45,128 bases of DNA from Actinomycetes bacterium. GTDB lineage: Bacteria > Actinomycetota > Acidimicrobiia > Acidimicrobiales > Acidimicrobiaceae. A program made the position numbers and the translations under genes. Position 1 is the first letter of the stretch. Each line of letters begins with the position of its first letter. Location of the stretch: NCBI GenBank assembly GCA_021784785.1, contig JAJYHJ010000017.1, forward strand, positions 1 through 45,128, written 5' to 3'. The notes under the pieces were generated by a model, which had not been told where the DNA came from, did not search any database, and saw nothing but the letters and a program-made list of their open reading frames with translations. This document shows positions 31,155 to 45,105 of this stretch, one piece after another.

Positions 31155-31265
31155 CGACAAAGTTTTTGTAACAGAGGCTTTGTAACGTAGTGTGGGATTG
31201 TCTAGATAGTTCATGGTGGAACTATGGGTTCATTTGATGTTTGAAGGGGAGCGACAAAGTTTTTG
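31155..31265 (+). repeat. 14-bp direct repeat CGACAAAGTTTTTG at 31155-31168 and 31252-31265
   Basis: Exact match read directly; second copy runs onto the TTG start codon of the first CRISPR-operon gene. Confidence 0.7.
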
Positions 31266-32375
31266 GAGAAAGTATTAGTGGCGACCTGCGGACTTAGTCC
31301 GCAGGTCATTACGGAGTCTGTGTATGCACTCGCACTTTGTGCTGAGGTTCCGTTTTACCCCACATCGCTAAAGGTAATCACGACCCTAGAAGGTAAAGAA
31401 AGAGTGCTTAGCACGCTATCTAGCCACGGGGAGGGTTGGCTTTTGAGGTTGTGCCAAGAGTACGATCTAAAGCCGCTGGACATCTGTGAAGAGGATATCT
31501 TGGTTCCCCCTAAGAACGTCACAAAGGGTGGAAGTCTAGAAGATATTAGAACCAGTCGGGATAATGCGATGACAGCGGACACCATAGCGCAGTTTGTAAA
31601 GGAACTGACCGAACGTGAAGATGTTATGGTACACGCATCGATTGCGGGTGGTCGAAAGACGATGGGGTACTTACTCGGATACTCACTTTCTCTTTTTGGT
31701 CGCGTGCATGACAGTCTCTCACACGTTTTGGTCTCCCCTGAGTACGAGTCCCTAGAGGGGTTTTACTATCCATCCAAGGAACCATTGTTGCTATCATCCA
31801 AGTTCGGCACTACTTTAGATGCTTCTGCGGCTCAAATCGATCTGGCGATTTTACCTTTTGTACGGCTGAGATCTTTTCTCCCCAATCACCTTCTTAATGG
31901 AAAGGTAAGTTTTTCTGAGACCGTGAATGCCATACTGTTAGGTCCAAATCTACGAGATATAAGGGTTGAGGTTAGGACATCAAGGGTGATCATCGATGAA
32001 AGTTCCATAGTACTTACGCCAATTCAAGTTGTAGTACTGAGTTACCTTATTGAAAGGGCCAAGGCGGGAGAGGGTTTGCAGTTTCCTCGAAAGAACATTT
32101 ACGATACTGAACTTGGCAATGAGCTCTTGGCTGAAGCGAAGAGACTTGGCGTTGATCTATCCCTTAGACAAGACACGCGGAATCGCCTCGCTCGGGGAGT
32201 GGACAGCTCCTACCTATACACCTTGTTTTCAAGGCTTCGTAAGAGTATTGCAAATGTTGTGGGAATTGACATAGCCCGAGTGCTTTTAAAAGAGACAAAG
32301 TCCGGGGTCGGGGAGAAGAGCGTTGAGTTTGGGGCCGATCTTAACGCTGTGACCTTCAGCTCGCAATGCGATTGA
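31263..32375 (+). CDS. CRISPR-associated CARF protein, NE0113/TIGR02584-like, with OmpR-like winged-helix C-terminus
   Basis: VATCGLSPQVITESVYALA, ASIAGGRKTMGYLLGYSLSLFGR...LSHVLVSPEYE; C-terminal SSIVLTPIQVVVLSYLIERAK...YLYTLFSRLRKSI. Confidence 0.8.
   Translation: MEKVLVATCGLSPQVITESVYALALCAEVPFYPTSLKVITTLEGKERVLSTLSSHGEGWLLRLCQEYDLKPLDICEEDILVPPKNVTKGGSLEDIRTSRDNAMTADTIAQFVKELTEREDVMVHASIAGGRKTMGYLLGYSLSLFGRVHDSLSHVLVSPEYESLEGFYYPSKEPLLLSSKFGTTLDASAAQIDLAILPFVRLRSFLPNHLLNGKVSFSETVNAILLGPNLRDIRVEVRTSRVIIDESSIVLTPIQVVVLSYLIERAKAGEGLQFPRKNIYDTELGNELLAEAKRLGVDLSLRQDTRNRLARGVDSSYLYTLFSRLRKSIANVVGIDIARVLLKETKSGVGEKSVEFGADLNAVTFSSQCD
31283..31307 (+). other. perfect hairpin GACCTGCGGAC-TTA-GTCCGCAGGTC inside codons 7-15 of the CARF gene
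   Basis: 11-bp perfect stem, 3-nt loop; no T-run afterwards. Confidence 0.6.
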
Positions 32376-32459
32376 AGGGAGAGATTTGAAAGTTTTCAAT
32401 CAACATGTGGTGAAGGTTCATCTGATACGCTTGGGCTATCCGTTTCGCGACTTCGGAGG

Positions 32460-33569
32460 TTGTATATGAGAGAGATGGCGCTATATAGAGTTAGTTTTTC
32501 GACTCCAGCGCTTTTAGGCAGCGCAGAACCTACCGTTGCAGAACTGCGAGTTCCGCCATTTCGATCCCTCCTGCGAAGTTTTTGGCGAGTGGTATATGCA
32601 GCAGATGGAGAAGTGCTCGATACAAACGCGATGTTGAGTGCTGAACAACAGATCTTTGGAGGAGTAGGCGGAAGAGGTGGCGGAAGTGAATCCTTTCGCC
32701 CCAGAAGATCATTAGTGGAATTGGCGATCACGAATGACAAAGGTAAGCCGACACTTTATCCAATTGAGAACGGATATGAGTTTACGCCAAAGCCAAGGCG
32801 CGGGAGTGGTGAACTTGCACAGCGTCTGGATTACCTCGGGTACCCGAGGGTGACTACAAATAATAAGGTTACAAGTTACAAGCAGTCGCTACTTTATACC
32901 GATAAAGAGTTTGTTTTAAGAGTTGCGTGGCCAGCGACAGACTCCTTGAGAAGCTCATTGTCAGAACAACAGGCGGAACAACTTTTTTGCGCTCTTGAAC
33001 TTATGTCGCTTTTCGGTACAGTGGGAAATCGAAGTAGACACGGCTATGGCTCCTTCTGTATGTTCAATATGGATGAGGACGAGCCATTCTATTCCTCTAG
33101 AGAAAAGCTGGAGGGTGAACTCTCCCGAGTTGCCTCAAAGTACCTGAGGTCCTGGGACAGGTGCTTTGGAGAGAAGATGGATATGTGGCCCAGATCCTTT
33201 GCAAGCCTAGAAAATAATAGCAAGCTGTCCGTGTTTATGAGCGAACAGTCCTTTAGCACCATTGTTGATGCTATGAAATCGTTGAGCGAAGTTTGGAGTA
33301 GTGCGCGCAAAAAGATGGGATCTGACAAAGAAGTTTTGGGAAGTCAAGGTAAAGGTCGAGATGTGTGCGCTTCTGAGAGATGGCCGTCGCAGCTGAGAGC
33401 CAAGATATTTCCAATTGAGGTAGAGGATAGAAAGAGGCAATTTGTCGTTGTGTTGTTTCAACTGCCGTATGGGCCCCAATCTCACAAGGAGATTTGGAGG
33501 AAGGCCCATAACTTTCTGTTCGACAATGGGTATCAACCCCTGTTCAATACAATTGGAGGGGTGAACTGA
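32460..33569 (+). CDS. cmr1: type III-B RAMP Cmr1 (start may be ATG 32466/32475)
   Basis: STPALLGSAEP...LRVPPFRSLLRSFWRVVY; FGTVGNRSRHGYGSF. Confidence 0.85.
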   Translation: MYMREMALYRVSFSTPALLGSAEPTVAELRVPPFRSLLRSFWRVVYAADGEVLDTNAMLSAEQQIFGGVGGRGGGSESFRPRRSLVELAITNDKGKPTLYPIENGYEFTPKPRRGSGELAQRLDYLGYPRVTTNNKVTSYKQSLLYTDKEFVLRVAWPATDSLRSSLSEQQAEQLFCALELMSLFGTVGNRSRHGYGSFCMFNMDEDEPFYSSREKLEGELSRVASKYLRSWDRCFGEKMDMWPRSFASLENNSKLSVFMSEQSFSTIVDAMKSLSEVWSSARKKMGSDKEVLGSQGKGRDVCASERWPSQLRAKIFPIEVEDRKRQFVVVLFQLPYGPQSHKEIWRKAHNFLFDNGYQPLFNTIGGVN

Positions 33570-33571
33570 AG

Positions 33572-36487
33572 GTGGATAATGAAAGAGCTCAGCTGCGTTT
33601 TAAGAGAAAACTTGCAGCATGGATTCATGACCCCGCAGAGAAGGCACTCGTTCTAATGCGTGATCCCAGTGGGCACGAGGGAGGGACGGTTCGATTCTTA
33701 AAGGAGAAGCTGAACCTTGAAGATAGAAGTTGGTTTAATGCTACGGCCGATCACTGGGCATCTGCGAGTGATAGACCCCAGTTTCCTAACTCTCCGCGTG
33801 AAAATGGTTTCATGCGTACGATCTCCGTAATCTTCTCCAAGGATCCGGTGATTAAGCATCCAATTTCAGGGGAAGAGTTCGATCTCTTGAACCTAGAGTC
33901 AATCGACATAGGCGAGATGAAAGCAGCGTCCTTCGATCACTTTGAGAAGCTTATAAGAACTGGTAAAGATGGGATAGATTATGAAGGGAGCTTTCTAGCC
34001 TTTTGGAGATTTGGTCCCGTTTCCCCACATGAAGGCCTAGCAGGTCTATGGTCTGTGCTTCCAGCAGATACAAGAGTGCCAGATCACAGCATCTGGAGCC
34101 ATCTGGACCTTACGAGTGCCTTTGGTACGGCTATGGATAGCGATCCGGCGCTATTTGAGCTTGCAATTGGTCCAGTTCAGAGCTTTATCAAGCAGTCACG
34201 ATCCACAGCGGACCTTTGGTCAGGATCTCATCTACTAGCCTCACTCTCATTTAGGGCTATGTCGGTGGTGATAGATCGTTATGGTCCTGACTCTGTGCTG
34301 TTCCCCTCTCTTAGAGGTCAACCCCTTATGGATCTTTGGTTGTTGCGTCGGGCACAGAAAATATCTGAGGAAGAGTTCAGTTGGTGGAAGGATAAGCTAT
34401 CCGGTGCACTAGGACGTGGACAGTCCGACTCCTCACCCCTTTATTCTGCCTCTTTGCCTAATAAATTTGTTGCGCTCGTGCCCTTTGACGAAGTCGAGGG
34501 TCTCGCAAAAGATATCAAAGACGACCTCAGAACGTATGTCTTGGAGTTGGGAATGAAAGGCGCAAAGAAACTCTTTCAAAGCGCATACGACCGGCATATG
34601 CAAGTTCAGATCAATCGTCAAATGGCAGAGTTTCCTGAGATGACATGGTCGACTACTCGATGGCCAGGGAAAAGAGAGTCTATGTCTGAGGCATCTGGAA
34701 TGTTAAAAGAGCTTCTAGGTGAGTTTCTTGGTGATAGCGATCGAGATAATGTACAAATGTTTTCCAAGCCCGCTTGGAAAGTACTGGAGCGAGTTGGAGA
34801 GTTGCCGGAGCCCGATTTTTTTTATAGGGCTAATCCAGGAGTCCTGTTTCCAGCAGTACTTGGAGTGGTTCAGGCACTCCAAGCTTCCTCAAAGAGCGAG
34901 AGGCTGTTTTCTGGTAGTACAGAACGTGACTTTCGGTGCTCTACTTGCGGAGACAGGGAATGGTTATGCACAGAACAAGAGGCTTTAGCTTATGAGAAAC
35001 ATTGGCCTTCTCCTGGCATTGGGAGGTCCGAGTCTATCTGGACGATGCTTGCTCGTAAACGTCCGCATTTGGCAAAAAAAAAGAGCGGAGAGTATCTTTG
35101 TGCTTTATGTTCCCTAAAGCGAAGCTGGCCGCTGCTTTTTAACGACGAAATAAAACATCTGCTTGGCCTGAAAATGCGGCGTTATATCGTCTCAACGCAT
35201 GCAATGGCTGCCACAATGACCCTTATCAAAAACTTAGAAAATCTCAGAGAAGTGGAAGACCGATCGAACGATAGTGACGATGAAAATAGTGAAGAAGATG
35301 CTTTGCTACCAGCACTTCCTCCAAAGTTGTATATCGAGGCTCGGAAGCTTGGCCAAGTCAATGAGTTGCAGGAACAATTAACAGAATTAGAGGACTACCA
35401 AGGCGTCCAGGAATCCAAAGCGACAGGTGAGTCCTACTATGGACTTTTGAAGATGGATGGCGACTCCATGGGTCGACTGCTTCAAAGCGGACATGAACGT
35501 AAGTACATCGATAGCTGGCATCCTAAGGTAAGGAAAAGCGCAGAAAATGTGGCTGAAGAGGTCCCTTCTCTCAGAGAGTACCTTGACTCTCGACGTCTTG
35601 TCTCGCCAGCATTTCAAAGAAGTGTCTCGGAGGCTTTGGGCAACTTCTCAACGTTTATGGTTAGGAAGATTTTAGAGCGATATCTATACGGGAAAGTGGT
35701 TTACGCGGGTGGTGACGACCTTTTGGCCTTTATACCAACGATTGACATATGTTCCTCTTTGGGTATGCTTCGTCAAGGATTTTCGGGCCAAAGTACGTTG
35801 GGGGGCGTGAATTACTTTGAGAAGGTCGACATGAAGGTAGGCGGAGGTTTCTGTTGGGACAACGATTCGCGATCGACGGGAGTACCTTTGCGAATCCTAC
35901 TTGGAAGTGAAGTGGCAACTGCTAGCTTCGGAGTGGTAATTGCCCATGCGAAGGCACCGCTTCCAGCGGTGCTATCTCAAGTGGATAGGGCCGAAGGTCT
36001 TGCAAAAAGTATGGGCCGTAACGGGTTTTGTATATCCATTATGAAACGAAGCGGTGGTGATGTGGGTATATTTGGATCTTTTGGCTCTCAAAGTTCAAGC
36101 GAAATACTTTCACCGCTCTTGACCCTAGATCGTCTTATCGGACTATTTAGTGACGAGTACTCAAGACGAGCAGCTTACATAGCAAGTACTTGGTTAGCAA
36201 GTCTTCCACCTCTGAATTCTGGATCGAGTGATCAAAGTGAATGGGAGGAAATGGTCGTATCAATGCTGAGATATCAGTTTGAACGTCAGATGAAAGACCC
36301 GGACGGGATCATGTCTGAGCAGGCTGACAAGGTAATTCGTTCTCTTGTTGTAAACGCCGTCAATGGAATGCTCAGACCTATCGACGCCCAATCATCTGAT
36401 GCGGTAATGTCATCTGAGGCGAAGGCTATCTCGTCGGTTCTTTCGGTGGCAGAGTTCTTGGCCCGGAGTAAGAGGAAAGTATCGTGA
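33572..36487 (+). CDS. cmr2: Cas10/Cmr2, with HD-like N-terminus, zinc-binding CxxC pairs and GGDD cyclase motif
   Basis: AAWIHDPAEKAL, CSTCGDREW/CALCSLKRSWP, VVYAGGDDLLAFIPT. Confidence 0.95.
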   Translation: MDNERAQLRFKRKLAAWIHDPAEKALVLMRDPSGHEGGTVRFLKEKLNLEDRSWFNATADHWASASDRPQFPNSPRENGFMRTISVIFSKDPVIKHPISGEEFDLLNLESIDIGEMKAASFDHFEKLIRTGKDGIDYEGSFLAFWRFGPVSPHEGLAGLWSVLPADTRVPDHSIWSHLDLTSAFGTAMDSDPALFELAIGPVQSFIKQSRSTADLWSGSHLLASLSFRAMSVVIDRYGPDSVLFPSLRGQPLMDLWLLRRAQKISEEEFSWWKDKLSGALGRGQSDSSPLYSASLPNKFVALVPFDEVEGLAKDIKDDLRTYVLELGMKGAKKLFQSAYDRHMQVQINRQMAEFPEMTWSTTRWPGKRESMSEASGMLKELLGEFLGDSDRDNVQMFSKPAWKVLERVGELPEPDFFYRANPGVLFPAVLGVVQALQASSKSERLFSGSTERDFRCSTCGDREWLCTEQEALAYEKHWPSPGIGRSESIWTMLARKRPHLAKKKSGEYLCALCSLKRSWPLLFNDEIKHLLGLKMRRYIVSTHAMAATMTLIKNLENLREVEDRSNDSDDENSEEDALLPALPPKLYIEARKLGQVNELQEQLTELEDYQGVQESKATGESYYGLLKMDGDSMGRLLQSGHERKYIDSWHPKVRKSAENVAEEVPSLREYLDSRRLVSPAFQRSVSEALGNFSTFMVRKILERYLYGKVVYAGGDDLLAFIPTIDICSSLGMLRQGFSGQSTLGGVNYFEKVDMKVGGGFCWDNDSRSTGVPLRILLGSEVATASFGVVIAHAKAPLPAVLSQVDRAEGLAKSMGRNGFCISIMKRSGGDVGIFGSFGSQSSSEILSPLLTLDRLIGLFSDEYSRRAAYIASTWLASLPPLNSGSSDQSEWEEMVVSMLRYQFERQMKDPDGIMSEQADKVIRSLVVNAVNGMLRPIDAQSSDAVMSSEAKAISSVLSVAEFLARSKRKVS

Positions 36488-37617
36488 TGAGGTACTTTTT
36501 TGTTCGACCAGTCGACGTTGTAATGCTGCGTGGCAACAAACTTTTTGGCGAAGCTGGGAGTTACGGTGATGTCGTTGTGCCTCCCTGGCCATCTGTCTTT
36601 GCAGGGGCATTTCGAAGTTATCTGTGGAACACACTTTCAGCTAATAAGAGGCGACAGATAATTGGAGATCCGAGGATCTGGGGTACTTTTCGACTTAGAT
36701 GGTTATCAGTCGGCCGCATCCATGGAACAGAGTTAGATTCGATGCTGGTGCCTTTGCCTAGTGACGTTGTGGTCTTAATGGAGGAAGGTAAGGCAGTAGG
36801 AATTTTAAAACCAAAAACAATCGATCGAGGGTCGATCACGTCATCTTCGGTACTTCCCATGCATATGGTAGCGTCAACGAGTGCCCCTGGAAAGACGACA
36901 AATCAAGGTCTTATTTCGAGTGCTGGCGTGAAAAAGTGGCAGGAGAGTCGACGGGGCATAGAGGTGTCCCAAGTAGGGCAGATTTTTATGTCCGATACCC
37001 GTCTGGGGATAGGTATGAACGTGGATTCGCGTACTGCCTCAGAAGGAGCTTTATACACATCAGATAGCGTAACAATGCGAGAAGGGTACGGTTTTCTGGT
37101 AGGCATCTGTGGTGAAGAGGGATTTTTACCCAAGAAGGGACTGCTTAGGCTTGGAGGAGACGGCAGGGGAGCTGAGTTTCTTGAAGTCAAAGCGAAGGAA
37201 CAGGTTGACCTTGCTACAAGACCTTCCGAGCTATTGAGAAATTCCGACAGATTGAAGATCGCTGCTGTGACGCCTCTCATCTTTGAAGATGGCTGGATTC
37301 CAGATGGAGTAAGGCAGCAGGATAACGACTATGTATTGGAGCTTGAAGGCTTCTCAGCAAGGTTGGTTTCGGTAGCTTTGAAAAGATATGAAACTATATC
37401 AGGATGGGACATGGCTAACCGTAGGCCAAAACTGGCACGACGTGCCGTTCCACCGGGTTCTGTGTACTTTTTTGATAGGTGCGAGGGAAATAAGGAGACA
37501 TTTTACAAGTGGTGCCGTGGAGGTATGCGTGATATGAGAAGGAACGAAGGCTTGAGAAGTACTGAGATTGAGGGATTCAACACCGTAGTTGTTGGTCTTT
37601 GGAGAGATAAGGAATAA
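36484..37617 (+). CDS. cmr3: Cmr3
   Basis: FVRPVDVVMLRGNKLFG...PPWPSVFAGAFRSYLW; position after cmr2. Confidence 0.85.
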   Translation: MMRYFFVRPVDVVMLRGNKLFGEAGSYGDVVVPPWPSVFAGAFRSYLWNTLSANKRRQIIGDPRIWGTFRLRWLSVGRIHGTELDSMLVPLPSDVVVLMEEGKAVGILKPKTIDRGSITSSSVLPMHMVASTSAPGKTTNQGLISSAGVKKWQESRRGIEVSQVGQIFMSDTRLGIGMNVDSRTASEGALYTSDSVTMREGYGFLVGICGEEGFLPKKGLLRLGGDGRGAEFLEVKAKEQVDLATRPSELLRNSDRLKIAAVTPLIFEDGWIPDGVRQQDNDYVLELEGFSARLVSVALKRYETISGWDMANRRPKLARRAVPPGSVYFFDRCEGNKETFYKWCRGGMRDMRRNEGLRSTEIEGFNTVVVGLWRDKE

Positions 37618-37621
37618 GGAG

Positions 37622-38557
37622 ATGTTTGAGAAGGCTGCGGTAATATTGTACTACGCCATTACCCCTACGCATATGGGGGCTGGTGATGGAGTCGGAGTGG
37701 TTGACGCTCCGATCCAGCGTGAGATTATGACTGGATATCCGGTGCTCTATGGCTCAGGATTAAAAGGTGCCATACGTCATGACCTCTCAAGAGAGTGGAA
37801 AGATCAGAGGCCTCGAGACCTTACTTTGATCTTTGGCCCAGAGTCGAAGGAGTCGTCGGAGCACGCCGGTGCAGTATCGTTTAGTGACGCGAATATAGTC
37901 CTATTTCCAGTAAAGTCGATGGAGAAAGGCTTTGTCTACGTGACCTCGCCTCTTTCTCTAGCTCGACTAGCTCGTCTTATCGAGGTTTCCAATGGCGATG
38001 CGGACTGGGGCATCGAAGCTCCGGACGACTCAGAAGCATTTGTTGCGTCAGGTTCTTCAGTTCTAGAGGTTGCCTTAGAAGATGATGGGGTAAAGAAAGT
38101 ATCGCTTGAGTATTTTGAGTTTAACCTGAAAGGCAGCGAAGAGCTTTTAAAAGCTACTACCTGGATCGCCGAGCATATAAATGCATACGATGTGGATGGG
38201 TTTTTTGCCAAGAAACTCCGTGAAGACATAGTGCTTATCTCGGAGAAAAACTTCGGTTTTTTTGTCAACAACCATACTTCAGTGGAACCTCACGTAAAAA
38301 TTGATCCAAAAACTGGAACTGCTGAAGGGAGCGCGCTCTTTTATGTCGAGAACTTGCCTCCTGAAACCCTTTTGGCAGGACTTGTCATGGCATCGAGAGT
38401 GAGGAGTCCGGAAGCGCAGGATAAAGACGCAAGCTGGGTACTTGACCAACTGAGCGATGAGATCGATAAAGAGATAGTGCAGTTTGGTGGAGATGCTACC
38501 TATGGACGTGGACTTATGCAGGTGGGGGTAGTTGAGTTGGATTTGAAGGAGAGTTAG
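37622..38557 (+). CDS. cmr4: Cmr4 (Cas7-like backbone RAMP); ATG 37622 preferred over track start 37589
   Basis: YAITPTHMGAGDGVGVVDAPIQREIMTGYPVLYGSGLKGAIRH. Confidence 0.93.
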   Translation: MFEKAAVILYYAITPTHMGAGDGVGVVDAPIQREIMTGYPVLYGSGLKGAIRHDLSREWKDQRPRDLTLIFGPESKESSEHAGAVSFSDANIVLFPVKSMEKGFVYVTSPLSLARLARLIEVSNGDADWGIEAPDDSEAFVASGSSVLEVALEDDGVKKVSLEYFEFNLKGSEELLKATTWIAEHINAYDVDGFFAKKLREDIVLISEKNFGFFVNNHTSVEPHVKIDPKTGTAEGSALFYVENLPPETLLAGLVMASRVRSPEAQDKDASWVLDQLSDEIDKEIVQFGGDATYGRGLMQVGVVELDLKES

Positions 38558-38968
38558 GTGCCAGTTTTACACACTTCTCTTGAACAGTCTCGGGTTCAAT
38601 ATGCGTATAAAGCCGTAACGGAGGCAAAGAGCGACGGCAAAAGGTTTACAAGTTATCGATCTCGTACTAAAGGTATTGGTAATTTGATTATGAACGACGG
38701 ACTGATCGGAGCTATGACGTTTATTTCGACTAAAAATGGCAAGGAGGATGGTGGAGAGATCCTCTTTCGCCATATGATAGGTTGGCTAGCCATTAGATTC
38801 CCAAATGACTTCAAACACGCTCGATCCAATAGCGTTACATCTGCCATAGAAGACCTGGTAAATGTGAGGGACTCCTCAACGTATATGCGTATCACTGAGG
38901 AGGCAATGTCCTTGGTGAGATGGTTGAGACAGATGGTTGACGTCTGTAAATCTGGAGATGAAGGATGA
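38558..38968 (+). CDS. cmr5: Cmr5 small subunit
   Basis: 136 aa, SLEQSRVQYAYKAV...YRSRTKGIGNLIMNDGLIGAMTF; position. Confidence 0.87.
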   Translation: MPVLHTSLEQSRVQYAYKAVTEAKSDGKRFTSYRSRTKGIGNLIMNDGLIGAMTFISTKNGKEDGGEILFRHMIGWLAIRFPNDFKHARSNSVTSAIEDLVNVRDSSTYMRITEEAMSLVRWLRQMVDVCKSGDEG

Positions 38969-40203
38969 GTTCTAATGGCGGCTTGCAATTAAGAGGTGGA
39001 AACCCAAAGGAAAGTAACCCTACTCCTCTTGTGCCTAATTACCTCTACCGAAGGCTCAATGGGAGTGAGGGTCGATTTCCCTATGACCAACGAAGTGGAG
39101 GGCAAAGGTTTCACGGTATGGTGAAAATGCTCAAGGACGCAAAAGGCAACAAGGACGAAAAGAAGTCAGTCATAGATGGGGTTGTGGGCGCCGGGAACTC
39201 AGATGGTGCTTCTGGGGTTGACAAAACTACATGGGAGGCAGTCTGTAAGCGTCAGAGTGAGATTCTTTTGCGATGCTACGGAGATAACGTTTTGGCGCTA
39301 CCCGTAGTTCTCACCTCCCCTCTTTTATGTGGGATCGGTGTGGAGAGCCTGACGGAGGTGGGCTTTTCATTCCAGAACCCTTATGGATTACCCTACTATC
39401 CGGGCTCGTCAATAAAGGGTTTGGCAAGAATGTGGGCATGCGAATTAGGCTTTGACGAGCGGAGAATCGATAATTTATTTGGCTCTAGAACTTGCCGGGA
39501 TCAAGTAGGTTCAAAGGGAGGTCTCTGGTTTTTGGATGCTTTCCCTGAACCAAGGTACAAGCAAGAGATTCTTACGCCACATCTCCAAAAATACTTACAA
39601 GGCGAATGTGACGAACCATCAGATTATTTTACGCCCATTCCTATCAAATTTGTAGCGATCTCCCCAGGTGCCAGGATGTGGATATGGGTTGTTGGTCGAG
39701 GGGACCAAGATGACTCTTGGCGTGTGCAGATCCAAAAGATCTTACAGCATGCTCTCGACTTTGGTATTGGGGCAAAAACCTCATCGGGATACGGACTCGG
39801 TTTCGTAGATGAACAGCTCTTTAAAGAGAATGCTCTTCTAGTAGAGGGATATAAGAGGGAGAGCGTAAGAGAGCTTGAAAAAAGACGTAAAGAGGAAACT
39901 CTGGCGTCTATGCCTCCAGAGGAAAGGCGTCTGGAGGAGATGCTTGAACATAAGTTAAGCATTCCCAGTCGTAGCAGCAAGTACATATCGATCATGAAGG
40001 ATGCTGAAAAGGATCCGCCGGATGAAGCTAGGGACTCGTTTTTAGCCTTTGTGGCCAGATTAGCCCAAGATGCATTCATTGAAGAAGATAAGTGGCTAAC
40101 TAACGATGAGCTTGCTTCATCAAGTCTTCCTAAGAAGAAGAGATTTCTAAAAGAGGATGTCCGGCTGATCTTAAAGTATATATCGTCAAACACGGTCGAG
40201 TGA
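38965..40203 (+). CDS. cmr6: Cmr6 RAMP with long charged C-terminal extension
   Basis: TSPLLCGIGVESLTEVGFSFQNPYGLPYYPGSSIKGLARMW. Confidence 0.9.
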   Translation: MSSNGGLQLRGGNPKESNPTPLVPNYLYRRLNGSEGRFPYDQRSGGQRFHGMVKMLKDAKGNKDEKKSVIDGVVGAGNSDGASGVDKTTWEAVCKRQSEILLRCYGDNVLALPVVLTSPLLCGIGVESLTEVGFSFQNPYGLPYYPGSSIKGLARMWACELGFDERRIDNLFGSRTCRDQVGSKGGLWFLDAFPEPRYKQEILTPHLQKYLQGECDEPSDYFTPIPIKFVAISPGARMWIWVVGRGDQDDSWRVQIQKILQHALDFGIGAKTSSGYGLGFVDEQLFKENALLVEGYKRESVRELEKRRKEETLASMPPEERRLEEMLEHKLSIPSRSSKYISIMKDAEKDPPDEARDSFLAFVARLAQDAFIEEDKWLTNDELASSSLPKKKRFLKEDVRLILKYISSNTVE

Positions 40204-40204
40204 T

Positions 40205-40516
40205 ATGTCAACATATCTAGTGACTCGTCATAAAGGGGCTGCTGAGTGGGTTCTTTCGAATGCAGCCAAATACTCCGTTGAGATTGATAGAGTGATTCCG
40301 CATCTCGATATTGAACTTCTGATTCCCGGAGATGTGGTGGTTGGAACGCTTCCGATTCAGATGGTGGCGTTGTTGACGGAACTAGGAGTTGGATATGTGC
40401 ACCTTTCCTTGACGGTTACGATGGATATTCGAGGTATGGAACTCACGTGCGAAGAGATGTACCGGCGCGACGCCCGGCTAGAGAGGTTCAAGGTTTGTAG
40501 AGATGAACCAGAATAG
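40205..40516 (+). CDS. csx16: Csx16 (VVA1548 family), ring-nuclease candidate
   Basis: YLVTRHKGAAEWVL...HLDIELLIPGDVVVGTLPIQMVALLTELGVGYVHLSL. Confidence 0.85.
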   Translation: MSTYLVTRHKGAAEWVLSNAAKYSVEIDRVIPHLDIELLIPGDVVVGTLPIQMVALLTELGVGYVHLSLTVTMDIRGMELTCEEMYRRDARLERFKVCRDEPE

Positions 40517-41735
40517 CGGGGGTATATGTGCGCAGATAAGTTTCGTGTCAGAAGAATCGGTGCCTAATGCGATAGCTTTGCTAGAAGAGAAACCAGATCT
40601 CTTGATTCTCGTTTCCTCTACCAAGATGCGAGGTTCACGACCCTATAACCAATTACGTGACTTTGCATTGAGCAGAGGAACCGAAGTGGTTACATTTGGA
40701 GACGAAGCCAAAGGAACGGATCTTTTGGACCTAGGTGCTTTAGCGGATGAAGTGGCGAAGTATATAAGTGGTCGTAGAGACATAACGTCTGTCTCGATCA
40801 ACTTAACCGGTGGTCCTAAGACGATGACGATTGTCTTTATGGAGTTTGCTAAGTCTCTCAAAGATCTGAAATCGATGTGGCTATATATCGATACTGATGA
40901 GAGAGTGATTTGGAGGTCGAAGCCGTCACACTTTTCCCCAAATCGTTCCCTTATGCAGGGGTATCTTTCCTTTGAGGAGTACCTCTACGTTCAAGGGTAT
41001 GAGGTAATGCGTAAACATCCTGAGTCCTATGGCGATGTCGTCAAAAATAGAGAAAAGCTGACCTTCCATCTGGCGGAAGTTGCGAGAGATAGTGCATCGC
41101 AAAAAGGTCATAGCCGCTCCATTTTGCAAGAATTACTCACACTCTTTACTAAAGCTCGTGTGAGTGATCGTGGAATAGCCTATAAGGACCAGTATCTCTC
41201 GAACGTGGATCAACGCTCTGTAAAGGTACTGGAGATGCTGACGGACTTCGGTCTTTTGGGATTGGAAAAAGTTGCGAACCATGAAAATCAATACCGAATA
41301 ACTTTTCAAGACGTACCCTCAGCGCGATATATTGGAGGCGCTTGGCTAGAAGAGTTTGCTTGGCTCCAATTAAGCAAGGCGGCTCAAGGGTGTAAATTAG
41401 ATTCAAACACCGTCATAAGCTCTGCTGTGGTAGTGAAGCCGAGAGAAGGGTCTGAGGATTCTTCAAATGAGATTGATGTTTTGTGCCTCAATCGAAACAA
41501 GATGTTGTTCGTCGAGTGCAAGTCCGGAGCCAAACCCGACAAAGAGGGTGGGGTTGCAACCTCTAAGCTGGCTGATTTGACTCGTAAAGTTGGTGGTCGC
41601 CTGGCGACATCAATTCTTGTAGCATCGGCACCTAGGCAAGAAATTCCATCTGGAAGAAGCACGGCAGTGAAGGTCTTTGCTGCGGAAGATCTCTTTGAGT
41701 TGGAGCGCTATTTTACGAAATGGTTGACCTCATAA
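40503..41735 (+). CDS. Card1/Can2-like CARF - PD-(D/E)xK nuclease (DUF1887-like)
   Basis: CARF SINLTGGPKTMTI; nuclease EIDVLCLNRNKMLFVECKSG. Confidence 0.85.
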   Translation: MNQNSGGICAQISFVSEESVPNAIALLEEKPDLLILVSSTKMRGSRPYNQLRDFALSRGTEVVTFGDEAKGTDLLDLGALADEVAKYISGRRDITSVSINLTGGPKTMTIVFMEFAKSLKDLKSMWLYIDTDERVIWRSKPSHFSPNRSLMQGYLSFEEYLYVQGYEVMRKHPESYGDVVKNREKLTFHLAEVARDSASQKGHSRSILQELLTLFTKARVSDRGIAYKDQYLSNVDQRSVKVLEMLTDFGLLGLEKVANHENQYRITFQDVPSARYIGGAWLEEFAWLQLSKAAQGCKLDSNTVISSAVVVKPREGSEDSSNEIDVLCLNRNKMLFVECKSGAKPDKEGGVATSKLADLTRKVGGRLATSILVASAPRQEIPSGRSTAVKVFAAEDLFELERYFTKWLTS

Positions 41736-42961
41736 TGGGGCTAGAGATCCTAGTTGAGCTTGAACGTATTCCGTTGGTGACGGAAGGAGGCTTAGCGGAT
41801 CGCTGGTTCTTGGAGGGGTGCCTTACCGAGGCAGTTGAAGTCATAGCATCTCTGATTACGAAGAGGGCTCCTGGAGAGCTTGAGAGATCAAGAGGGCTAG
41901 CAGCCCTAAATCGCCTCTTGACCCAACCTCCCTGGATTGCTTCAATGAGGGGTGACGGTGGTACGTTTGCAAGGTTTGTATGGCCAGGTTTCGGTGGTCC
42001 TGAGCTTGACCTGATTTTATCAATGGGCGACTCTGGGAGAGTCGGTAGTGTGCATATATGCAGGGTAGACGGTATAGCTGAAGACGGCGTGATCTATCGT
42101 CCGGCTAGAGATGGAAAAGGCCTAGGGCAAACGGATATCTCTCTAAGTGCGCCTCTAAATGTGGTATATCCGAGCCCACGGGACATTGTAATAGGTAGGC
42201 GTAAAGTTGACTATACAAAGGTGAAACTGCGAACCGAGGATGACGAATATAATTTCTCTAGGCAGGGTTCTGATCAGCTCAGTGGAGTAACCGTAAGGTT
42301 TGCAAAGTCTGTTCAAGATGCTCGGTACCTTGTGCGAGTTGTCGAATCTTTCAGAGCAGCACTTATGTCCAAGGCAAGCAGTCCTTTGGCGGCCTTTATC
42401 TCAGGAAAGCGTGGCGACGGCGTTCGACTAGATAGTCACCAACACCCTTATCTTGTTCCCCGACTTAGTGCCCATGGAATTGATGGCATTGTGATAGTTA
42501 CCGAACGGAAATGGTCATCAGTTATCTTTGAGCTGACTCGAAAGATCAAAGATCTTTATGTTCCTAGCTTACATAAAACACTGATAGCTGGAGTCACTGT
42601 TGGTGGCATTGAGGATGTCTTTGGTGCTCCCGCTCATTACCGAGTGTTTCAAAGTTATACGCCATACGTTCCGTCGCGCTACATGCACAAAAATCAAGAC
42701 CTTCTTGAGTTTGTAACTCAAGACATCGCGGCGGAACTGTCTAGGCGTGGCGTGAACTCCGATTTTCAAATAACACCGCTTAAGGGAAACGTGATTGAAC
42801 GACCGGTGGTGCTATTGGATCGACGAACTCCCAGGAGCAAGGAGAACAAAGTCTGTTATGGATATGAGTTAAAGATTGAGATGGCTGACGCTACTAATTC
42901 CCGCCTTCTTCTTGGCCGATTGAATCACTTTGGGACTGGGGTATTTCGTGGTGTTGAGTGA
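41735..42961 (+). CDS. Csb2/GSU0054-like RAMP (Cas5/Cas6-type, typical of type I-G); ATG 41735 in TAATG overlap with the previous gene
   Basis: ARYLVRVVESFRAALM...SPLAAFISGKRGDGVRLDSHQHPYLVPRLSAHGIDGIVIV; LGRLNHFGTGVF terminus; between CARF nuclease and cas4-cas1. Confidence 0.65.
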   Translation: MGLEILVELERIPLVTEGGLADRWFLEGCLTEAVEVIASLITKRAPGELERSRGLAALNRLLTQPPWIASMRGDGGTFARFVWPGFGGPELDLILSMGDSGRVGSVHICRVDGIAEDGVIYRPARDGKGLGQTDISLSAPLNVVYPSPRDIVIGRRKVDYTKVKLRTEDDEYNFSRQGSDQLSGVTVRFAKSVQDARYLVRVVESFRAALMSKASSPLAAFISGKRGDGVRLDSHQHPYLVPRLSAHGIDGIVIVTERKWSSVIFELTRKIKDLYVPSLHKTLIAGVTVGGIEDVFGAPAHYRVFQSYTPYVPSRYMHKNQDLLEFVTQDIAAELSRRGVNSDFQITPLKGNVIERPVVLLDRRTPRSKENKVCYGYELKIEMADATNSRLLLGRLNHFGTGVFRGVE

Positions 42962-44609
42962 ATTAGGAGAGATACCGTCGACAGTTCCGCTTTCTATTCT
43001 TCGAAGCTTCCTTTACTGCGAGCGTCGTGCTTATCTGGAGTGGGTAGATGCTTACGATGTCAAAACCTCTGATGACGAGCATGGAAAGGACTCGTTATTT
43101 TTACATCAGCAGCTAATCAAACGGTGGGAAATGGAATTTGGTGAAAAGATAGAGGAGTCATACTTTGTGTCTGAAGATTTCAAAATGGAAGGCAAAGTCG
43201 AATACGTCGAAGACACCTTAGAAAAGCCCGTACTCTCTCGATCTACCCCGGTGCTTCTGCGCAACACTTATCCGCCTCCCGACGTAGCGGCGTGGCCCAA
43301 CGACTTAGTCTTGGCTACTGCCATCGCAGCTTTGTTCGAAAGTTTAGCGACTGATTCCAACTCGGCGTGGATCTTCTATGGACAGGGAAACCAAAATAGT
43401 AGCCGTCATTTAGTAGAGATTACGACAGAATTGCGGACTCAGTTGGCTGCTCAAATTACGACACTGTTTGAGATGGTGCGCAGCGGTACGCTTCCGAAAA
43501 TCATAGATGATCTCGATCGCTGTTCACGATGTCCCTTTGCGGCACTGTGCCATCCCGATGAGGTGGGACCACAAGAGGGTAAGCCGATTTGGGTATCAGA
43601 TGATGTAAAGCGCCCGATGTATGTGACAGGAGCTGATCTATCGATTAACAAGGTTGGCGGACGTTTCGAGGTGCGCCGTCGTGAGGAAGTTATAGATGAT
43701 GTAAAAGCCATAGAACTATCACAATTGAATTTGTATGGTGGTGTTCGTATAAGCACACAAACGGTGTCGGAGTTGCTCAAACGCGACGTGCCCATTTTAT
43801 ACTTCAGCGCGGGAGGTTGGTTTAATGGAATAACGACCAGTTCCTTGTCGGGGAGAATCGATCTGAGAATTCGCCAGTTCCATAGATTCCAATACGGGGA
43901 TCTTGAACTTGCCAAATCGGTTGTCTCTGCAAAGGTCAGAAATTATCGTACGCTCCTAAAGAGGAACTCTGTAACGGTTGACTCGAGTGCGCTCAAACGC
44001 CTGAAGGAAATTTACTCAAGGACCATATTCGACTGCTCGGAGTTTCAAACTCTCCTCGGGCTTGAAGGTATTGCAGCAAAAATCTACTTCGAGAACTTTG
44101 CTTCGATGATTAAATATAGAGATGATGGCTACTCGAGCACGTTTGACTTTCAGGGAAGAAACCGTCGGCCACCCTTGGATCCGATTAATAGCATGCTTTC
44201 GTATGCATATGCTGTATTGATCAAGGATATATTTGTTGAACTTTTAGGTGTTGGTTTTGATCCTTTCTTAGGATTTTATCATAAGCCTCGCTTTGGGAGA
44301 CCTGCACTAGCCTTAGATTTGGCGGAGGAGTTTAGACCGCTCGTAGCGGATTCTATTGTGCTTACGTTGATTAATAAGAGGATGGTAGACGATGAGGATT
44401 TTTTAATCCATCCGCGGGGTGTCACGCTTACTAGCTCGGGAAAGAAGAAGCTGCTGATGGCTTACCAATCTCGATTGAACTCGGAAGTGATTCATAAAGA
44501 ACTGGGATATCGTATCACCTACAAGCGAGCTCTCGAGGCGCAGGCTCGGATACTAGCAGCGGTTCTAGTTGGAGATCGAGATGGTTACACACCTTTCATT
44601 ACTAGGTAA
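42930..44609 (+). CDS. Cas4-Cas1 fusion (start may be GTG 42948/42951)
   Basis: N-terminal YCERRAYLEW and CSRCPFAALCHPDE (Cas4); Cas1 part LEGIAAKIYFENF, RNRRPPLDPINSMLSYAYAVL, GFYHKPRFGRPALALDLAEEFRP. Confidence 0.95.
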   Translation: MGLGYFVVLSELGEIPSTVPLSILRSFLYCERRAYLEWVDAYDVKTSDDEHGKDSLFLHQQLIKRWEMEFGEKIEESYFVSEDFKMEGKVEYVEDTLEKPVLSRSTPVLLRNTYPPPDVAAWPNDLVLATAIAALFESLATDSNSAWIFYGQGNQNSSRHLVEITTELRTQLAAQITTLFEMVRSGTLPKIIDDLDRCSRCPFAALCHPDEVGPQEGKPIWVSDDVKRPMYVTGADLSINKVGGRFEVRRREEVIDDVKAIELSQLNLYGGVRISTQTVSELLKRDVPILYFSAGGWFNGITTSSLSGRIDLRIRQFHRFQYGDLELAKSVVSAKVRNYRTLLKRNSVTVDSSALKRLKEIYSRTIFDCSEFQTLLGLEGIAAKIYFENFASMIKYRDDGYSSTFDFQGRNRRPPLDPINSMLSYAYAVLIKDIFVELLGVGFDPFLGFYHKPRFGRPALALDLAEEFRPLVADSIVLTLINKRMVDDEDFLIHPRGVTLTSSGKKKLLMAYQSRLNSEVIHKELGYRITYKRALEAQARILAAVLVGDRDGYTPFITR

Positions 44610-44612
44610 CTC

Positions 44613-44906
44613 ATGAAACTCAGGCGTTATCTAGTATGCTACGATGTAGGAGATCCAAAGAGGCTTCGGTCGCTCGCTAAATGCCTTGAGTCCTTTGGTG
44701 ACCGTATTCAATACTCCGTTTTCATCTGCGACCTTCCTCTTGTGGAACTGAACCGAATGAAGTATCTCATAACAAAGATTACCAACAATCAAGAAGACTC
44801 AGTGATTGTTATAAATCTGGGCGTATGTAGGCCGGAGTTGGAGGAGAAGATTTTGTTGATGGGCAAGCTCGCAATTCGCCCAAACTACGTTTCGAGAGTT
44901 TACTGA
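44613..44906 (+). CDS. cas2: Cas2
   Basis: RRYLVCYDVGDPKRLRSLAKCLESFGDRIQYSVFIC, 97 aa. Confidence 0.95.
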   Translation: MKLRRYLVCYDVGDPKRLRSLAKCLESFGDRIQYSVFICDLPLVELNRMKYLITKITNNQEDSVIVINLGVCRPELEEKILLMGKLAIRPNYVSRVY

Positions 44907-45069
44907 ATGTTATGAAGAACGAGCTCAGATGAAAAGACGCTCGAGTCCTGCTAAAGGGTATAGTTTCACTGAAGTTTTAGCTAGTTTCTAATAGAATTTG
45001 AGGTTAAAGTTGGAGTTGCTCGAAATTGCCAGTTCGAGTGCTGTTCATAACTATTATAATGGAATGACT
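44907..45069 (+). promoter_or_regulatory. candidate CRISPR leader with -10-like TATAAT at 45055-45060
   Basis: AT-rich non-coding stretch between cas2 and the candidate first repeat. Confidence 0.5.
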
Positions 45070-45105
45070 GTTTCCATGCTCGAAGGGGCGTGGCCCCATT
45101 ACGAC
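45070..45105 (+). CRISPR. candidate first CRISPR repeat (36 nt) GTTTCCATGCTCGAAGGGGCGTGGCCCCATTACGAC, followed by 23 nt of a truncated putative spacer
   Basis: GGGGC-GTG-GCCCC hairpin followed by exactly 8 nt ATTACGAC (Cas6-type 5' handle length); location after cas2. Only one copy is in the window. Confidence 0.5.

What the first reader, a model, noticed from the sequence alone, without database searches (positions are those of the whole stretch)
31263..45105. Hybrid CRISPR locus: type III-B effector with type I-G-like processing and adaptation genes
One tight operon holds complete cmr1-6 plus two CARF proteins and Csx16, then a Csb2-like RAMP and a Cas4-Cas1 fusion, genes typical of type I-G (ex I-U). 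The other I-G genes (cas3, Csb1, Csx17-like cas8) are absent from the window, and no canonical cas6 is seen. This suggests I-G maturation and acquisition genes were captured to serve a Cmr/cyclic-oligoadenylate system.
Basis: partly seen in the sequence, partly recalled or inferred. Interest (0 to 1): 0.68.

Follow-up and report, generated by a model that had tools for sequence, protein, structure and literature searches.

The report
RNA-sensing CRISPR with borrowed I-G parts
In iron-oxidising actinobacteria of the Ferrithrix lineage, an RNA-sensing (type III-B) CRISPR immune system runs on the array, RNA-cutting enzyme and memory-making genes of a DNA-targeting (type I-G) system, and the borrowed parts it probably does not need (the Cas5 half of Csb2 and the target-motif-choosing Cas4 nuclease) have decayed or been lost.

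Summary
One operon carries cmr1-6, two CARF proteins, Csx16, a Csb2-like protein, a Cas4-Cas1 fusion, Cas2 and an I-G-class CRISPR array. The array continues on another contig, followed by ordinary genes. I found no I-G effector gene and no conventional cas6 anywhere in the 88%-complete genome. The same gene order occurs in the isolate Ferrithrix thermotolerans DSM 19514 (98% complete, also without I-G effector or cas6) and in two other Acidimicrobiia families. (1) Only the Cas6 half of Csb2 is recognisable. The Cas5 half is undetectable in the window and Ferrithrix, and absent in two relatives; the catalytic-type His is kept. (2) The Cas4 nuclease motif, intact in 81 of 84 other fusions, is lost in the window and Ferrithrix and altered in a third locus; a fourth has no Cas4 domain. 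The Cas1 active site is kept. (3) The repeats keep I-G geometry, but the crRNA tag ends in AC rather than GC. Most likely this is a III-B/cyclic-oligoadenylate system with I-G-derived crRNA maturation and spacer integration, probably without Cas4-based PAM selection. Function is inferred; no experiment was run.

The parts
31263..32375 (+). CARF protein of the NE0113/CARF5 family (TIGR02584 'ring nuclease Csm6')
   Evidence: PF09623 3.2e-33, TIGR02584 4.9e-57, PADLOC CARF5 2.6e-92
32460..33569 (+). cmr1 (divergent)
   Evidence: RAMPs 5.8e-9; PADLOC Cmr1 3.7e-9; 38% identical to the Ferrithrix cmr1 at the same position
33572..36487 (+). cmr2/cas10, with HD (H19-D20) and GGDD (713-716) motifs
   Evidence: Cmr2_N 3.1e-30, palm2 7.8e-21; motifs
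36484..37617 (+). cmr3 (the Cas5-type subunit of Cmr)
   Evidence: Cas_Cmr3 9e-51
37589..38557 (+). cmr4 (Cas7 backbone)
   Evidence: TIGR02580 7.2e-62
38558..38968 (+). cmr5 (small subunit)
   Evidence: Cas_Cmr5 1.4e-18
38965..40203 (+). cmr6
   Evidence: TIGR01898 4.8e-28
40205..40516 (+). csx16, member of a family shown to be a cA4-specific ring nuclease (PMC12409355)
   Evidence: Cas_VVA1548 1.5e-24
40503..41735 (+). Card1-type CARF-PDDEXK effector nuclease
   Evidence: Card1_endonuc 3e-12, CARF_Card1 2.8e-7; PADLOC CARF_PDDEXK 1e-44
41720..42961 (+). csb2-like: C-terminal Cas6 domain (about residues 190-413) with H240-x-H242 and H403; N-terminal ~190 aa without recognisable Cas5
42930..44609 (+). 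cas4-cas1 fusion: Cas4 domain (about residues 1-210) with lost RecB nuclease motif but four Fe-S cysteines; Cas1 domain with intact active site (E379, H451, D463, E466)
43194..43268 (+). decayed RecB motif region: KVEYVE and PVLLRNT where other fusions read xIDxxE and PV[DE]YKRG
44613..44906 (+). cas2
   Evidence: TIGR01573 2.3e-12; PADLOC Cas2g 2.5e-26
44907..45069 (+). leader between cas2 and the first repeat
   Evidence: position
45070..45105 (+). first CRISPR repeat, I-G class: 4 nt + 8-bp stem + 4-nt loop + 12-nt tail ending ATTACGAC

Best explanation
This is a self-contained type III-B (Cmr) immune locus that uses the array, crRNA-processing and spacer-integration machinery of type I-G. 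(1) The I-G-class array is transcribed as pre-crRNA. (2) The Cas6 domain derived from Csb2 cuts each repeat 4 nt 3' of its hairpin, giving crRNAs with the 8-nt tag AUUACGAC. (3) These crRNAs load Cmr1-6; Cmr3 supplies the Cas5 function, so the Cas5 half of Csb2 was free to diverge or be lost. (4) When Cmr binds viral RNA, Cas10 makes a cyclic oligoadenylate, probably cA4, which switches on the Card1-type nuclease and the other CARF protein; Csx16 degrades the signal. (5) New spacers are integrated by Cas1-Cas2. The fused Cas4 domain keeps its Fe-S cysteines but not its nuclease residues, so prespacers are probably trimmed by Cas1 or host nucleases without PAM selection, which an RNA-sensing effector does not need. 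Shown here: gene content, homology, motif losses, repeat geometry, recurrence. Inferred: every biochemical step, the cA4 signal, and the reason for the losses.
For: Gene content. No I-G effector or Cas6 found in the window's genome or in Ferrithrix. Same gene order in Ferrithrix, G427 and in part G531. Csb2-like C-terminus against I-G Csb2 C-terminus: hhalign 99.6%, E 1.9e-24; the model's C-terminal domain matches Cas6 structures, 6fjw E 1.8e-6 and 4z7k TMt 0.59. N-terminus against the I-G Cas5 half: 0.3%, E 0.24, while two-sequence I-G controls score 98.1% and 97.8%; G427 and G531 proteins are only 266 and 289 aa. Repeats have the I-G hairpin plus 12-nt tail, and I-G Csb2 of T. sulfidiphilus cuts 4 nt 3' of the stem to give an 8-nt handle (PMC9638904). 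RecB motif HD[DE]KQ in 81 of 84 other fusions; window HEL-L, Ferrithrix HEL-I, G531 -DERL, G427 no Cas4 domain. Window and Ferrithrix keep 15 and 13 of 30 conserved Cas4 columns but 65 and 64 of 71 Cas1 columns. Pfam Cas4 is undetected in both but found in I-G and archaeal type III controls. In M. barkeri Cas4/1, the Cas4 mutant E101A abolishes PAM-strand cleavage, while Cas1-domain trimming is PAM-independent (PMC10504553). Csx16 degrades cA4 (PMC12409355). HD and GGDD are present in Cas10.
Against: No biochemical test. Type III loci of Methanothrix and Methanosarcinales that carry Cas4-Cas1 keep Cas4 intact (29-30 of 30 conserved columns), so pairing with type III does not by itself cause Cas4 decay. 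The N-terminal domain of window and Ferrithrix Csb2-like is still 190 aa and 26% alike, so it may do something. No spacer target was found, so absence of a PAM is untested. The genome is only 88% complete. H403 = Tsu H503 rests on position, not on a direct alignment.
Confidence: 0.74

Rival explanations
1. Relic rather than capture: a complete I-G system and a Cmr system once shared this locus and array, the I-G effector (cas3, cas8g, csb1) was lost in place, and the remaining I-G genes now serve Cmr. The present mechanism is the same; the history differs.
For: G427 still has a Cas3g, a Csb1 and a second Cas4-Cas1 on another contig beside its III-B hybrid. Cas1 of the hybrids falls near actinobacterial I-G Cas1 in the careful tree.
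Against: The G427 I-G Cas4-1 is very distant (29% identical, extreme branch), so it is not the donor. No I-G remnant lies in the flanks, and no intermediate with both effectors in one operon was found.
Confidence: 0.3
2. The Csb2-like protein is not the crRNA maturase: its odd N-terminus marks a new role, and crRNAs are made by another RNase.
For: N-terminal half not recognisable as Cas5; TIGR02165 below cut-off; only 38% identical even in the Cas6 half between congeners.
Against: Catalytic-type His and H-x-H kept in all four; stem-loop geometry kept in all four repeats; no other Cas6 found in Ferrithrix; gene sits between effector and adaptation genes in all four.
Confidence: 0.12
3. The Cas4 domain is still an active PAM nuclease using altered residues.
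For: Four Fe-S cysteines retained and the domain kept in frame in two species.
Against: D, D/E, K and Q all changed in both species; Lys changed to Arg and Gln to Leu in G531; whole domain lost in G427; alignment to solved GsuCas4/1 7mi4 shows PVDYKRG replaced.
Confidence: 0.1
4. Assembly or binning artefact joining two loci.
For: Draft genome in 183 contigs; the array is split between contigs.
Against: Same order in the cultured isolate Ferrithrix thermotolerans DSM 19514 and in two other families; overlapping genes on one contig.
Confidence: 0.01

Closest known systems
Type III-B (Cmr) CRISPR-Cas with cA4 signalling (Card1-type nuclease, Csx16 ring nuclease)
   Same: Full cmr1-6 set, Cas10 with HD and GGDD, CARF effectors, ring nuclease
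   Different: Carries its own array, Cas1-Cas2 and crRNA maturase of I-G type. The 2025 classification says most type III loci apparently use Cas6 in trans and most III-B loci lack arrays (PMC12669027).
Type I-G (ex I-U): Cas3g-Cas8g-Cas7g/Csb1-Csb2-Cas4/1-Cas2
   Same: Cas4-1 fusion, Cas2, Cas6 half of Csb2, repeat hairpin and 12-nt tail
   Different: No Cas3g, Cas8g or Csb1; no recognisable Cas5 half; Cas4 motif lost; tag ends AC instead of GC
Methanothrix/Methanosarcinales type III loci with Cas4-Cas1 (L138 III-B, L085 III-D with stand-alone Csb2-C, L086)
   Same: Type III effector with I-G-type adaptation genes, I-G-geometry repeats (L138, L086), Csb2-C as stand-alone Cas6 (L085)
   Different: Cas4 intact; one common origin with the Acidimicrobiia hybrids is rejected on Cas1 (p-AU 1.3e-4)
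Type V-B loci with Cas4-Cas1 fusion (L081, L089 with Cas12b)
   Same: Cas4-Cas1 fusion serving a non-I-G effector
   Different: DNA-targeting Cas12b; Cas4 motif intact; no Csb2

Membership tests
Type III-B (Cmr) | Cas10/Cmr2 with polymerase GGDD motif | tested here: met
Type III-B (Cmr) | Cmr1, 3, 4, 5 and 6 subunits | tested here: met
   Cmr1 weak
Type III-B (Cmr) | RNA-activated cyclic oligoadenylate synthesis | not testable with these tools
   motifs and CARF/Csx16 partners only
Type I-G | Effector genes cas3g, cas8g/csx17, cas7g/csb1 | tested here: not met
   no Csb1, no Csx17, Cas3g hits only far below cut-off in G000 and G465 (the Csx17 search rang in no control genome)
Type I-G | Cas4-Cas1 fusion of the I-G branch plus Cas2 | tested here: met
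   Cas4g/Cas1g 1.5e-148, below the curated cut-off; Cas1 tree
Type I-G | Repeat: 7-8 bp stem with 12-nt 3' tail, 8-nt handle | tested here: met
Csb2 (Cas5-Cas6) | C-terminal Cas6 domain with catalytic-type His | tested here: met
Csb2 (Cas5-Cas6) | N-terminal Cas5 domain (GRYHATPW...EWPPSPWR) | tested here: not met
   motif absent; hhalign 0.3% against 98% controls
Cas4 nuclease | RecB motif D, D/E-x-K, Q | tested here: not met
Cas4 nuclease | Four Fe-S cysteines | tested here: met
Cas6 endoribonuclease | Cleaves the cognate repeat RNA | not testable with these tools
   needs assay

The most novel reading that the evidence does not exclude
The Acidimicrobiia III-B loci have rebuilt a captured I-G module for RNA-sensing immunity. 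The fused Cas4 has become a non-catalytic Fe-S domain, so Cas4-1/Cas2 integrates spacers without a PAM, and the 190-aa N-terminus of Csb2-like has become a new adaptor, for example one that hands crRNA to Cmr. The series window/Ferrithrix (dead Cas4, odd N-terminus), G531 (altered Cas4, no Cas5 half), G427 (no Cas4, no Cas5 half) records the steps of this conversion.
Probability: 0.3. Interest if true: 0.68.

Novelty: new variant of a known kind. Interest (0 to 1): 0.55.

Why it matters
Whether type III systems need PAM-selecting adaptation is an open question: type III arrays that show a PAM are attributed to type I acquisition modules acting in trans (PMC8482600). Here nature offers the matched comparison: the same kind of Cas4-Cas1 fusion with a live Cas4 when it serves a DNA-targeting effector, and a dead or missing Cas4 when it serves only an RNA-sensing one, in a lineage with a cultured member. 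It also shows that a Csb2 Cas6 domain can be used apart from its Cas5 half, as a spare part (III-B, III-D and I-B loci). Typing by array or adaptation genes alone would misname such loci.

Tried and rejected
Spacer targets: blastn of the whole array against phages gave nothing, and six 20-nt spacer cores against IMG/VR gave nothing, so no PAM analysis was possible. Csb2-like against PLSDB plasmids and against viral contigs: no relatives, so no mobile-element carrier was found. Alignment A1 was too divergent for a collection scan; Cas4-1 was used instead. A quick Cas1 tree that included the extreme branch L152 put the hybrids beside archaea; without it they group near actinobacterial I-G, so the first placement was rejected as long-branch pull. 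N-terminal structure: low-confidence ferredoxin/RRM-like topology, no hit below E 0.028, so descent from Cas5 is undecided. No solved structure matches the Csb2-like protein or I-G Csb2-C by sequence. I first took L090 for a type III locus; it is I-B (Cas8b, Cas3b) with a stand-alone Csb2-C. Literature searches found no description of a III-B/I-G hybrid, but only open-licence papers are held and supplements were not searchable.
Full report
WHAT IS THERE. The window is contig C24 of a draft genome (2.39 Mb, 183 contigs, 88% complete). From 31263 to 44906 twelve genes run on the + strand with overlaps or short gaps: carf, cmr1, cmr2/cas10, cmr3, cmr4, cmr5, cmr6, csx16, card1-type CARF nuclease, csb2-like, cas4-cas1, cas2. 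Cas10 has the HD and GGDD motifs. The first repeat of a CRISPR array is at 45070-45105; 24 more repeats with 23 spacers of 35-43 nt open contig C147. Beyond them are an MFS transporter and housekeeping genes, not I-G genes or a cas6. The C24-C147 join is inferred from the shared repeat, which the search found on no other contig.

NOTHING ELSE SUPPLIES THE MISSING PARTS. Searches of the genome and of three relatives found no Cas6 of families TIGR01877 or PF10040 (the only hit is Cmr6, below cut-off), and no Csb1, Csx17 or genuine Cas3g in the window's genome or in Ferrithrix, which is 98% complete. The Csx17 search also rang in none of its control genomes, so it is weaker evidence than the others, although the same model recognises I-G Csx17 by direct scan. 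Genome G427 does have Cas3g, Csb1 and a distant second Cas4-1 on another contig.

IT RECURS. The same order is in G465, which is Ferrithrix thermotolerans DSM 19514 (same 20,801-base contig, L030 and L060), with every gene present at 31-57% identity. G427 (another family of the order) has cmr2-6, csx16, card1, csb2-like, cas1, cas2 and an array. G531 (a third family) has cmr2, cmr3, cmr6, csx16, a different CARF-type protein, csb2-like, cas4-cas1, cas2 and an array. Such loci are rare: four in roughly a thousand genomes sampled from the phylum, class, order and families. Ferrithrix flanks are not syntenic with the window's, so the locus has moved or been gained separately.

ONLY THE CAS6 HALF OF CSB2 IS RECOGNISABLE. 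In type I-G, Csb2 is a Cas5-Cas6 fusion. Its C-terminal half cuts the repeat (H503 in T. sulfidiphilus) and its N-terminal half is needed to assemble the I-G effector (PMC9638904). The window protein matches Csb2 only in its C-terminal half. Profile comparison of window plus Ferrithrix C-termini with I-G C-termini gives 99.6%, E 1.9e-24, while the N-termini give 0.3%, E 0.24. Two-sequence control profiles of distant I-G N-termini score 98.1% and 97.8%, so the failure is not due to shallow profiles. The I-G signature GRYHATPW...EWPPSPWR is missing. In G427 and G531 the protein is 266 and 289 aa, and the upstream gene leaves no room for a Cas5 half. H240-x-H242 and H403 are kept in all four; H403 is taken as the equivalent of H503 because it is the invariant His about ten residues from the C-terminus, not by direct alignment. 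The predicted structure's C-terminal domain (most blocks at pLDDT 80-96) matches Cas6. The N-terminal model is weak and looks ferredoxin/RRM-like, so a very diverged Cas5 remnant is not excluded. Cmr3 is the Cas5-type subunit of Cmr, which would make a Cas5 half unnecessary (inference).

THE CAS4 NUCLEASE HAS DECAYED. Eighty-eight Cas4-Cas1 proteins were aligned. The motif H, D, D/E, K, Q is intact in 81 of the 84 comparators (one more has Q changed; two lack the N-terminus in the frame read). Window: H, E, L, none, L. Ferrithrix: H, E, L, none, I. G531: none, D, E, R, L. G427 has no Cas4 domain: Cas1 begins right after the Csb2-like stop. The four Fe-S cysteines are kept in window, Ferrithrix and G531, and the Cas1 active-site residues are kept in window, Ferrithrix and G427 (the G531 frame is interrupted). 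The window keeps 15 of 30 highly conserved Cas4 columns but 65 of 71 Cas1 columns. Pfam's Cas4 model does not detect the domain in window or Ferrithrix but does in controls. In the solved Geobacter Cas4/1 (7mi4) the aligned stretch reads PVDYKRG where the window reads PVLLRNT. In M. barkeri Cas4/1 the Cas4 mutation E101A abolishes PAM-strand cleavage, and the Cas1 domain trims without regard to PAM (PMC10504553). I infer that E101 is the D/E of this motif. The likely consequence is spacer integration without Cas4-based PAM choice.

THE ARRAY IS I-G CLASS. The repeat GTTTCCATGCTCGAAGGGGCGTGGCCCCATTACGAC folds as 4 nt, 8-bp stem, 4-nt loop, 12-nt tail; on its own this fold is not stronger than shuffles (z -1.3), so the argument rests on conservation. 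Ferrithrix has GTTTCCATGCTCGAAAGGGCATGGCCCCATTACGAC, in which a G-U pair becomes A-U. Most I-G repeats in the set share this geometry, and I-G Csb2 cuts 4 nt 3' of the stem to leave 8 nt (PMC9638904); here that gives AUUACGAC. All 25 readable I-G tags end in G-C or G-G. The seven type III loci with I-G-type adaptation genes (window, Ferrithrix, G427, G531, L086, L138, L091) end in A-C. These are not seven independent cases, and AAAC tags are ordinary outside I-G (own knowledge), so the change may simply mark non-I-G use.

HISTORY. On Cas1, window, Ferrithrix and G427 form a clade (99/86); G531 falls beside an actinobacterial I-G Cas1, but one clade for all four is not rejected (p-AU 0.44). The Csb2-C tree agrees (91/89 for the three; p-AU 0.33). 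Joining them with the archaeal type III loci is rejected (p-AU 1.3e-4), and with the III-A locus L091 strongly so. Type III effectors have therefore been paired with I-G-type adaptation genes more than once. Stand-alone Csb2-C also occurs with III-D (L085) and I-B (L090). The archaeal type III loci keep Cas4 intact, so Cas4 decay is a feature of the Acidimicrobiia loci, not a rule.

VERDICT. Module exchange among CRISPR loci is well known (PMC12669027), so the hybrid itself is a new variant of a known kind. The parts that are not, as far as I could find, described are the loss of the Cas5 half and the loss of the Cas4 nuclease in step with service to an RNA-sensing effector. Functions are inferred throughout.

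Noticed in passing
L091:3-5508: Blastocatellia III-A locus (Cas10 with GGDD, Csm-type genes) followed directly by a Cas4-Cas1 fusion with intact Cas4 motif and an array whose tag is ATTGAAAC: a separate pairing of type III with I-G-type adaptation.
   Followed up: partly
L090:70-12002: Blastocatellia I-B locus (Cas8b, Cas3b) with a stand-alone Csb2-type Cas6 (261 aa), Cas4-Cas1, a CARF-HEPN and a CARF5 protein: type I effector with CARF genes and an I-G-derived Cas6.
   Followed up: partly
L085:1-11662: Methanothrix III-D locus with a stand-alone Csb2-type Cas6 domain (279 aa) next to a divergently transcribed Cas4-Cas1.
   Followed up: partly
L081:513-7305; L089:9959-19580: Acidimicrobiia/Actinomycetes MAG loci with Cas4-Cas1, Cas2, array and a ~1200-aa Cas12b (type V-B); Cas1 is sister to an I-G one (L070).
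   Followed up: partly
L138:8872-9908: Methanosarcinales III-B locus with an unassigned 143-aa ORF and a SAVED4-like protein between a Card1-like nuclease and Cas4-Cas1.
   Followed up: no
L036:10128-11760: The cas4-cas1 gene of G531 is split over two reading frames (frameshift or assembly error), so adaptation may be broken there.
   Followed up: partly
window:31263-32375: The C-terminal ~145 aa of the NE0113-type CARF protein look by eye like a winged-helix DNA-binding domain; it may regulate the operon rather than be a nuclease.
   Followed up: no
L015:1808-1846: Just past the last repeat, a 3' fragment of the repeat plus the following bases (GATGACCGCTGTCCTTC) is duplicated.
   Followed up: no
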